DNA of 17,026 nt from Candidatus Atribacteria bacterium (GTDB taxonomy: Bacteria > Atribacterota > JALVIU01), in the NCBI GenBank assembly GCA_027028665.1, contig JALVIU010000385.1:2501-19526 (forward strand), in the 5' to 3' direction. Within the stretch, counting starts at the first letter, position 1. Every line of letters begins with the position of its first letter. Shown piece by piece: positions 10,459 to 12,043 of the stretch. Under the pieces are notes generated by a model. The model searched no databases. It was not told the DNA's origin and was given only the letters and a program-made list of their open reading frames with translations. A program made the position numbers and the translations under genes.

Positions 10459-11493
10459 CTAAAATTGACTAAGAAAACGTAGGTCATTTTCATAGAACAA
10501 TCTTATATCATCAATATTGTATTTTAGCATCGCAATCCTTTCAATCCCCATCCCAAAGGCAAAACCAGTATATTCAGAAGGGTCATAACCTACTGCCTTA
10601 AATACCTCTGGATCTACCATACCTGCACCCATTATCTCTAACCAACCAGTATAACCACATGCCTTGCAGCCTTTACCTTTACATATACCACATGAGACAT
10701 CTACCTCTGCACTGGGCTCGGTGAATGGGAAAAAGCTTGGTCTAAATCTAACCTTTCTATCTTCTCCAAAGATACGTTTTACAAAGGCAGTAAGTATACC
10801 CTTTAGGTCACCCATACTCACATTCTTGTCAACCAAAAGCCCCTCTACCTGATGGAACATAGGGGAATGAGTGCTATCTACAGCATCCCTCCTATAACAT
10901 CTTCCCATAGTTATAATCCTTACAGGGGGTTTTTGTGCAAGCATTGTTCTTATCTGTACAGGGGACGTGTGGGTGCGAAGAAGTACATTATCACTTACAA
11001 AGAGAGTATCATGCATATCTCGTGCAGGATGGTCCTTAGGTATATTCAAGGCCTCAAAATTATGATAATCATCCTCTATCTCTGGTCCTTCTGCTAAAGA
11101 AAAATTCATTCCAAAAAAGAAATCCTTTATCTCCTCCATAATTACATTTAAGGGATGTTTATAACCTACCCTACTAATCCTTCCTGGAATGGTTACATCT
11201 ATCTTTTCTTCTTCTAATCTCTTTTGGGCCTCTATTTTTTCTATTTCTCTTTCTTTATCCTCTATAAGAGCTGTAAACAGGACCTTTGTCTGATTTACAA
11301 CCTTACCTATCTCCCTTTTTTCCTCAGGTGAAAGAGAAGAGAGTCTCTTTAAGAAACTATTGAGTACCCCCTTTCTTCCAAGATACTTTATCCTTAAAGA
11401 TTTTAAAGTTTCTTTATCTAAATTCTTAGATTTTAAAAGTTCTATACCCTCTTCTTTGAGTTTTTCTATTTCTTCTTTTATTTTCTCTACCAT
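10459..11493 (-). CDS. pheS: Phenylalanine--tRNA ligase alpha subunit
   Basis: Catalytic class II aminoacyl-tRNA synthetase subunit that charges tRNA-Phe. The 344 residues give an N-terminal coiled coil (about 1-95) that contacts tRNA, class II motif 1 around HPLNVIMEEIKDFF (113-126), motif 2 at GRCYRRDAVDSTHSPMFHQ (197-215), and motif 3 at GFAFGMGIERIAMLKY (310-325). THTSPVQIR (174-182) is the conserved substrate-pocket segment. A CxxC...CxxC set (C268, C271, C276, C279) follows SAEVDVS and may hold a metal; such cysteines occur in many bacterial PheS proteins. ATG start with GAGGTGAG at 11503-11496 immediately downstream of the T-box terminator. Predicted to be induced by uncharged tRNA-Phe. 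Confidence 0.97.
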   Translation of the reverse strand: MVEKIKEEIEKLKEEGIELLKSKNLDKETLKSLRIKYLGRKGVLNSFLKRLSSLSPEEKREIGKVVNQTKVLFTALIEDKEREIEKIEAQKRLEEEKIDVTIPGRISRVGYKHPLNVIMEEIKDFFFGMNFSLAEGPEIEDDYHNFEALNIPKDHPARDMHDTLFVSDNVLLRTHTSPVQIRTMLAQKPPVRIITMGRCYRRDAVDSTHSPMFHQVEGLLVDKNVSMGDLKGILTAFVKRIFGEDRKVRFRPSFFPFTEPSAEVDVSCGICKGKGCKACGYTGWLEIMGAGMVDPEVFKAVGYDPSEYTGFAFGMGIERIAMLKYNIDDIRLFYENDLRFLSQF

Positions 11494-11508
11494 AACTCAC
11501 CTCTCTAT

Positions 11509-11563
11509 AAAAAATAAAAAAAGTTTATAACTTCATCCAAGGGACGAAAGTTATAAACTTTTT
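11509..11563 (-). terminator. Regulated intrinsic terminator of the pheS T-box
   Basis: A 16-bp perfect stem formed by 11563-11548 and 11533-11518 (AAAAAGTTTATAACTT paired with its complement) with a 14-nt loop, followed by a T-rich tract to about 11509. It lies just ahead of the pheS Shine-Dalgarno. The 14-nt loop contains the CGTCCCTT that forms the 3' side of the alternative antiterminator, so the two folds exclude each other. Confidence 0.93.
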
Positions 11564-11705
11564 CCGTGGTACCACCCTTATTGGCAAATGCCCACTCAAT
11601 TATATTATAACGGATATACCCGTCTCTCTCTACTCTCAGACATTTCAAGAGAGAAAAAAGGAGAGGGAACTTCAGGAAACTACCCTTACTCACTCTCCCT
11701 CTTTT
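11509..11705 (-). promoter_or_regulatory. T-box riboswitch (tRNA-Phe-responsive, ultrashort Stem I) ahead of pheS
   Basis: The leader reads uncharged tRNA-Phe and prevents premature termination before pheST. The T-box core AAGGGTGGTACC is at 11579-11568. TGGT in the antiterminator bulge complements an ACCA 3' end, which fits the A73 discriminator of tRNA-Phe. AAGGG (11579-11575) and ACG (11567-11565) pair with CGTCCCTT to form the antiterminator. The F-box CCGTTA is at 11613-11608, paired in the Stem IIA/B region with ACGG just upstream. Stem II has arms CTCTCT (11653-11648) and AGAGAG (11631-11626 region) enclosing GAA and AGTA. Stem I is very short: AGTA (11690-11687) faces GAA (11673-11671), followed by TTC at 11669-11667, a Phe specifier. 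Its 12-bp lower helix (11704-11693 with 11665-11654) begins inside rplT. Exact helix ends are inferred by hand. Confidence 0.92.
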
Positions 11706-12043
11706 ACCATATTAACCAGATCACTAAAGGCCCTGGCATCTCTAATAGCCATATCTGCTAAAACCTTTCTATTTAAGGCAATATTTAATTTATTAAGACC
11801 TCCTATAAACTTGCTATAAGATATGCCATTCTGCTTGCATGCAGCACTTATTCTGGCAATCCAAAGTCTTCTAAAATCCCTTTTTCTATTTTTTCTATCT
11901 CTATATGCGTAAAAAAGGGATTTATAAACTTGCTCCTTTGCAGGCCTAAAAAGCTTACTTTTCCCTCCATAATAACCTTCTGCAAGTTTTAGAATTTTCT
12001 TTCTTCTCTGTCTTGTTTTTACACTATTCTTTACCCTTGGCAT
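11690..12043 (-). CDS. rplT: 50S ribosomal protein L20
   Basis: Early-assembling 23S rRNA-binding protein that is essential for 50S assembly. The 117 residues match the normal length; the very basic N-terminal extension ([20 protein letters not shown]) and the [20 protein letters not shown] segment are characteristic. In E. coli and B. subtilis L20 also represses its own operon through a leader RNA. Here the infC leader appears only about 30 nt long, so that type of control is not evident. ATG start with AAGGAG about 8 nt upstream; 29 nt separate it from rpmI. Its final codons and TGA stop form part of the Stem I helix and specifier loop of the downstream T-box. Confidence 0.97.

What the first reader, a model, noticed from the sequence alone, without database searches (positions are those of the whole stretch)
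11509..11705. Phe T-box with an ultrashort Stem I
The sequence shows a full T-box core (antiterminator, F-box CCGTTA, Stem II with its own GAA/AGTA pair), but Stem I is only about 50 nt long. AGTA and GAA sit opposite each other, then comes TTC as Phe specifier, capped by a hairpin of roughly four base pairs. There is no room for the distal AG bulge and interlocking T-loops that recognise the tRNA elbow. Ultrashort Stem I T-boxes are described mainly for ileS leaders of Actinobacteria, most of them controlling translation; here one appears to control transcription termination of pheS.
Basis: partly seen in the sequence, partly recalled or inferred. Interest (0 to 1): 0.75.

Follow-up and report, generated by a model that had tools for sequence, protein, structure and literature searches.

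The report
Transcriptional phenylalanine T-box, drastically shortened Stem I
In front of the phenylalanine tRNA-synthetase genes sits an RNA switch (a T-box) that reads the matching tRNA, but the arm that normally grips the tRNA is cut to about a quarter of its usual distal length; related bacteria share milder versions, which challenges the view that transcription-controlling T-boxes need the full arm.

Summary
On the minus strand, 11705-11509, between rplT and pheS, lies a complete Phe T-box: UUC specifier, Stem II S-turn, IIA/B pseudoknot with F-box, Stem III, antiterminator and U-tailed terminator. Stem I is about 45 nt: 13 nt between AGUA and GAA against about 56-69 in canonical T-boxes. 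It has no distal tRNA-elbow motif (IDTM) and no kink-turn. Rfam's T-box model matches (E 2e-17) but falls under its cut-off because the distal arm is missing. The other four T-boxes of the same genome keep the IDTM. It is not isolated: 18 of 20 pheS T-boxes found in this phylum (Atribacterota, inferred) show no IDTM; this one is the shortest. valS and hom leaders there are also short, with matching Val/Thr specifiers, so the trait is lineage-wide and not a lone deletion. 37 of 41 pheS T-boxes from other phyla parse at canonical length. The architecture is that of published class IV (side-bulge specifier, no IDTM), not true ultrashort class III; both are described as mostly translational. Best reading: a working transcription-terminating Phe T-box that relies on Stem II instead of the elbow contact. 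New variant of a known kind; function untested.

The parts
11509..11705 (-). whole pheS T-box leader, from Stem I to the end of the terminator U-tract
   Evidence: RF00230 79.4 bits, E 2.1e-17 over 11705-11537; z-score -5.47
11693..11698 (-). Stem I proximal helix, 5' strand GGAGAG (pairs with 11665-11660; five weaker A-U/G-U pairs can extend it to 11703/11655)
   Evidence: compensatory changes against relatives
11687..11692 (-). specifier loop, 5' side UGAGUA (S-turn strand AGUA at 11690-11687); UGA 11692-11690 is also the rplT stop codon
11674..11686 (-). distal cap of Stem I, AGGG-UAGUU-UCCU, 4 bp; no AG bulge, no T-loops
   Evidence: 4 of 4 pairs show changes on both sides in A2
11666..11673 (-). 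specifier loop, 3' side GAA-G-UUC-C
11667..11669 (-). specifier UUC (Phe)
   Evidence: same spacing (GAA-N-NNN) as the Leu, Trp and Arg T-boxes of this genome; Leu and Arg codons fit their genes ilvB, ilvD, argC
11660..11665 (-). Stem I proximal helix, 3' strand CUCUCC; all pyrimidines, so no kink-turn G-A pairs
11654..11659 (-). U-rich linker between Stem I and Stem II, in place of the kink-turn
   Evidence: inference
11623..11654 (-). Stem II with S-turn GAAA (11646-11643) / AGUA (11634-11631)
   Evidence: helix 3 is paired in 14 of 14 sequences, with changes on both sides
11601..11623 (-). Stem IIA/B pseudoknot; F-box CCGUUA 11613-11608; loop UAUAU 11618-11614 can pair with AUAUA 11605-11601
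   Evidence: loop partners change together (UAUA/UAUA here, UUAU/AUAA in f2, CUCC/GGAG in f5), read by eye from the alignment
11583..11592 (-). Stem III GGC-AUUU-GCC
11564..11579 (-). T-box AAGGGUGGUACCACGG; UGGU (11574-11571) to pair with tRNA ACCA
11539..11546 (-). 3' strand of antiterminator CGUCCCUU
11518..11563 (-). terminator hairpin, arms 11563-11548 and 11533-11518, U-tract to 11509; excludes the antiterminator
   Evidence: forced folds of the 3' part: terminator -32.0, antiterminator -13.6 kcal/mol; consensus terminator scan did not list it
11496..11506 (-). pheS ribosome-binding site AGAGAGGUGAG, outside the terminator
   Evidence: sequence; inference
10459..11493 (-). pheS, regulated gene (pheT follows at 10449-8038)
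   Evidence: TIGR00468 370.9 bits, TIGR00472 800.9 bits, both above cut-off
11690..12043 (-). rplT; its last codons AAA GAG GGA GAG UGA form the 5' strand of Stem I
   Evidence: TIGR01032 160.4 bits

Best explanation
This is a functional, tRNA-Phe-sensing T-box that controls transcription termination ahead of pheST inside the infC-rpmI-rplT-pheS-pheT gene cluster. Uncharged tRNA-Phe pairs its anticodon GAA with the UUC specifier in the side bulge of a very short Stem I. Because there is no distal IDTM to hold the tRNA elbow, binding affinity comes from the Stem II S-turn clamping the codon-anticodon duplex, with the IIA/B pseudoknot setting the geometry, as in the actinobacterial ileS T-boxes. 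The free ACCA end then pairs with UGGU, stabilises the antiterminator and lets RNA polymerase read into pheST; charged tRNA leaves the terminator as the default. Shown: anatomy, conservation of pairs, specifier-gene match in relatives, mutually exclusive hairpins. Inferred: tRNA binding, the compensating role of Stem II, and actual termination.
For: RF00230 match. Default terminator far more stable than antiterminator, -32.0 vs -13.6 kcal/mol for the 3' part. Pairs of Stem I, its cap, Stem II and IIA covary across 14 pheS leaders: 11 of 17 pairs with changes on both sides, 0 of 500 shuffles as high, and slid controls far lower. Model R1 finds pheS T-boxes of this kind in 20 genomes of families f1, f2 and f5. 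Other short-Stem-I leaders in the lineage carry GUC before valS and ACC before hom, so specifier-gene logic is kept without the IDTM. The same genome's other T-boxes keep canonical arms.
Against: No experiment. tRNA-Phe was not among the 28 tRNA matches of the own genome (about 90% complete), so the anticodon and discriminator base could not be checked. The base after the specifier is C, not the usual purine. A review states that transcriptional T-boxes generally require the IDTM, and that short Stem I plus Stem II needs a kink-turn (PMC7583486); here both are absent. A related genome (L045) has lost Stem I and II altogether, so decay does occur. RNAfold pairs the specifier with GAG of the opposite strand.
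Confidence: 0.8

Rival explanations
1. A decaying T-box: a deletion fused Stem I to rplT, tRNA control is lost or weak, and the hairpin is just a terminator/attenuator between rplT and pheS.
For: Stem I lacks both IDTM and kink-turn and overlaps the rplT stop codon. In relative L045 the bare antiterminator-terminator follows the rplT stop directly, with Stem I and II gone.
Against: The specifier loop, a matching Phe codon, a closed cap, S-turn, pseudoknot, Stem III and T-box are all intact, and helices differ from relatives by paired changes. Intermediate forms are widespread.
Confidence: 0.14
2. A T-box that acts mainly on translation initiation, like the actinobacterial class III/IV elements it resembles.
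For: Stem I architecture is that of mostly translational classes (PMC10482949).
Against: The alternative hairpin ends in U7AU6 and does not cover the pheS ribosome-binding site at 11506-11496; relatives have the same hairpin followed by T-runs.
Confidence: 0.04
3. Misread or misassembled sequence: a canonical Stem I exists but was lost in assembly.
For: One fragmented draft genome (413 contigs), no genome of the same family held.
Against: rplT is intact to its stop, the short arm is closed by perfect helices, and relatives also have short arms.
Confidence: 0.02

Closest known systems
Class IV T-boxes (Actinomyces odontolyticus ileS type; PMC10482949)
   Same: No IDTM; specifier in a side bulge between two helices of a shortened Stem I; Stem II S-turn and IIA/B pseudoknot present
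   Different: Phe and pheS instead of Ile and ileS; terminator instead of Shine-Dalgarno sequestration; kink-turn missing; Atribacterota-like host
Class III T-boxes (Nocardia farcinica / M. tuberculosis ileS, ultrashort Stem I; PMC7583486, PMC10482949)
   Same: No IDTM; dependence on Stem II expected
   Different: Class III is mostly translational
Class I T-boxes (B. subtilis tyrS type; RF00230), including pheS T-boxes of Bacillota
   Same: Antiterminator/terminator switch, Stem II, IIA/B, Stem III, specifier in an internal loop
   Different: Class I has a long Stem I with AG bulge and T-loops and usually a kink-turn
Short Stem I pheS, valS and hom T-boxes of related genomes (families f2, f5)
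   Same: Terminator type, no clear IDTM, specifier fits the gene
   Different: Arms of 19-64 nt against 13 nt; some valS leaders keep a kink-turn-like segment

Membership tests
T-box (RF00230) | covariance-model match with T-box, antiterminator, Stem II, F-box, specifier loop | tested here: met
   E 2.1e-17 over the full model, though 79.4 bits is below the curated 93; the shortfall lies in the missing distal arm
T-box (RF00230) | specifier codon matches the regulated gene | tested here: met
   UUC before pheS (TIGR00468)
T-box (RF00230) | tRNA-dependent switching | not testable with these tools
   needs in vitro transcription
Class I T-box | long Stem I with distal IDTM | tested here: not met
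   13 nt between AGUA and GAA; canonical 58-77 in 37 of 41 pheS leaders of other phyla
[quoted passage not shown]
Class IV T-box | shortened Stem I without IDTM, side-bulge specifier, Stem II present | tested here: met
   definition in PMC10482949
Class IV T-box | kink-turn between Stem I and Stem II | tested here: not met
   continuous 6-11 bp helix, all-pyrimidine 3' strand. Whether class IV strictly requires it is not stated in the sources read
Class IV T-box | mostly translational control (a tendency, not a strict definition) | tested here: not met
   terminator with U-tract, ribosome-binding site free

The most novel reading that the evidence does not exclude
A whole bacterial lineage runs transcription-terminating T-boxes for several amino acids (Phe, Val, Thr) without the tRNA-elbow motif, and some, including this one, without a kink-turn, so fast co-transcriptional tRNA capture can be achieved by the Stem I-Stem II clamp alone; in this genome the leader is further fused to rplT so that the terminating ribosome may gate the folding of Stem I.
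Probability: 0.5. Interest if true: 0.72.

Novelty: new variant of a known kind. Interest (0 to 1): 0.58.

Why it matters
The current explanation for why transcriptional T-boxes keep a long Stem I is kinetic: the IDTM speeds tRNA capture before the polymerase reaches the terminator (PMC7583486). A natural series of terminator-type T-boxes with arms from canonical down to 13 nt, some with the kink-turn missing as well, lets that idea and the open question of kink-turn-free T-boxes be tested directly. It also shows that Rfam's cut-off misses such elements.

Tried and rejected
Canonical Stem I hidden upstream in rplT: no other AGUA within 75 nt upstream of the specifier. Pseudo-match: rejected by E-value, shuffles and covariation. 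A one-genome oddity: rejected, 20 pheS leaders with model R1. A first tRNA-Phe anticodon pattern was badly designed and found nothing useful. The PheS tree does not resolve where f1 sits relative to f2/f5. The consensus terminator scan listed no terminator, probably because the helix is A-U rich and interrupted. My script's specifier reading is wrong for some loci where it took a 9-nt loop (e.g. L040, L162, L173); these were read by eye.

Full report
What is there. The element is on the minus strand, 11705 to 11509, between rplT (TIGR01032, 160.4 bits) and pheS (TIGR00468, 370.9 bits), with pheT downstream. RF00230 matches 11705-11537 over its whole length with 79.4 bits and E 2.1e-17. The curated cut-off is 93 bits, so a gathering-level scan of the window reports nothing. 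The alignment shows why: about 48 positions of the distal Stem I and the kink-turn positions are skipped.

Anatomy of Stem I. The proximal helix GGAGAG/CUCUCC (11698-11693 with 11665-11660) can be extended by weaker pairs to 11 or 12 bp. The specifier loop is 6 x 8 nt (UGAGUA / GAAGUUCC) against 7 x 8 in the Rfam consensus. The cap AGGG-UAGUU-UCCU has four pairs. The unconstrained minimum-energy fold of the whole leader contains the proximal helix and the cap. UUC follows GAA by one nucleotide, the frame seen in the canonical T-boxes of this genome. There is no AG bulge and no room for T-loops. The 3' strand of the proximal helix and the linker after it are pyrimidines only, so a canonical kink-turn, which needs G-A pairs, cannot form there.

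The rest is ordinary. Stem II with S-turn, IIA/B pseudoknot with F-box CCGUUA, Stem III, T-box UGGU and the antiterminator are present. The 3' part folds at -32.0 kcal/mol as terminator and -13.6 as forced antiterminator, so termination is the default. The pheS ribosome-binding site lies beyond the terminator. The consensus terminator scan did not flag the hairpin, which I attribute to its A-U rich, interrupted stem; the U7AU6 tail is plain in the sequence.

Chance. Of 20,000 dinucleotide-preserving shuffles of the first 110 nt, 22 had any specifier loop with both flanking helices and one had it with a Phe codon.

Same genome. Four other T-boxes were found, before ilvB (Leu), an ABC-transporter-like gene (Trp; gene function not tested), argC (Arg) and ilvD (Leu); all keep arms of 59-65 nt with AGAGA. 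Three of those four also lack the kink-turn positions in the Rfam alignment.

Relatives. The 50 held genomes of the phylum fall in seven families; the window's family f1 has no other member. PheS leaders of families f2 and f5 carry T-boxes, while none was seen in the pheS leaders of families f3, f4 and f6 that I read. A model (R1) built from the window and 13 such leaders, whose distal arms I excised to model the short form, finds 20 genomes with strong hits (97.8 to 131.2 bits), all at pheS; the next hit has 56.8 bits. Arms between AGUA and GAA are 13 nt in the window and 33 to 64 nt in the others; 18 of 20 show no AGAGA-like distal element. L049 and L051 (54 and 57 nt) have an AGAGA/AAGAGA stretch and could keep a degenerate IDTM. 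L069 (64 nt) is long but lacks the motif. One search gives the pair counts: 87.4% of cells paired, 11 of 17 pairs with a change on both sides, none of 500 shuffles as high, and slid controls at 57% or less. The alignment holds clades of near relatives, the f5 register of Stem I and IIA is shifted by one, and arms were excised, so these counts are supportive rather than exact.

Beyond pheS. Several f2/f5 leaders with arms of 19-36 nt have specifier GUC before valS and ACC before a homoserine dehydrogenase gene. Some valS leaders keep a kink-turn-like segment. Leaders with GAC and arms of 28-38 nt also occur; their genes were not identified. The Ser, Trp and Leu leaders that could be parsed keep canonical arms. 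So loss of the IDTM is repeated and gene-specific in this lineage, and the specifiers still fit the genes.

Other phyla. Among 80 named pheS loci, 41 had a T-box; 37 parse with arms of 58-77 nt and the four others show AGGGAG or AGAGA elements by eye.

Host. The genomes match the phylum Atribacterota by size and make-up (a single-contig 3.10 Mb member and a single-contig 2.27 Mb member; PMC11227167 gives 3.1 Mb for Atribacter laminatus and a closed genome for Thermatribacter velox). This is inference; no name was obtained from sequence. The PheS tree leaves f1 unresolved.

Mechanism. In the ileS T-boxes without IDTM, Stem II clamps the codon-anticodon duplex (PMC7583486, PMC10482949). The same parts are present here, so I infer the same clamp. 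The rplT stop codon UGA is part of the specifier loop; a ribosome terminating there would cover Stem I, which might delay its folding. This last point is inference only.

Known or new. Published classes: I and II generally transcriptional; III and IV without IDTM and mostly translational (PMC10482949). TBDB notes sequences with a truncated Stem I found by the class I model and re-tested them with the translational model (PMC7778990), so truncation as such is known. I found no paper in the held library that describes terminator-type T-boxes without IDTM in this phylum; the library lacks most subscription papers, so priority is not established.

Noticed in passing
L245:576-651, L249:555-630, L037:1552-1627, L252:426-501, L257:591-666, L258, L260, L263, L264, L240, also L292-L302, L304-L306: leuS T-box leaders of families f2 and f5 contain a complete tRNA-Ala(GGC) gene with encoded CCA inside Stem III (GUAGAU-[tRNA]-AUCUAC just before the T-box). 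The pattern occurs once per genome, so it may be the only such tRNA gene; in families f4 and f6 the same tRNA precedes a leuS-like gene with a plain terminator and no T-box core seen. May be more novel than the finding itself.
   Followed up: partly
L001, L002, L004 and window 11705-11654: Four of five T-boxes of this genome lack the kink-turn positions of RF00230, three of them while keeping the IDTM.
   Followed up: partly
L045 (G009), about 122 nt upstream of pheS: T-box core and terminator follow the rplT stop codon directly; Stem I, II and III are missing, an apparent relic.
   Followed up: partly
L159, L160, L161, L165, L166, L236, L250, L253, L261 (valS); L162, L171, L173 (hom): Short Stem I T-boxes with GUC (Val) and ACC (Thr) specifiers.
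   Followed up: partly
L174, L269, L274, L275: Short Stem I T-boxes with GAC specifier upstream of genes not identified here.
   Followed up: no
window 11690-11701: The last codons of rplT double as the 5' strand of Stem I; in relatives the stop codon lies tens of nucleotides upstream.
   Followed up: partly
L175, L176, L246, L247, L248, L251, L254, L259: Trp-type leaders give two T-box core matches about 100-140 nt apart, possibly tandem antiterminators; not examined.
   Followed up: no
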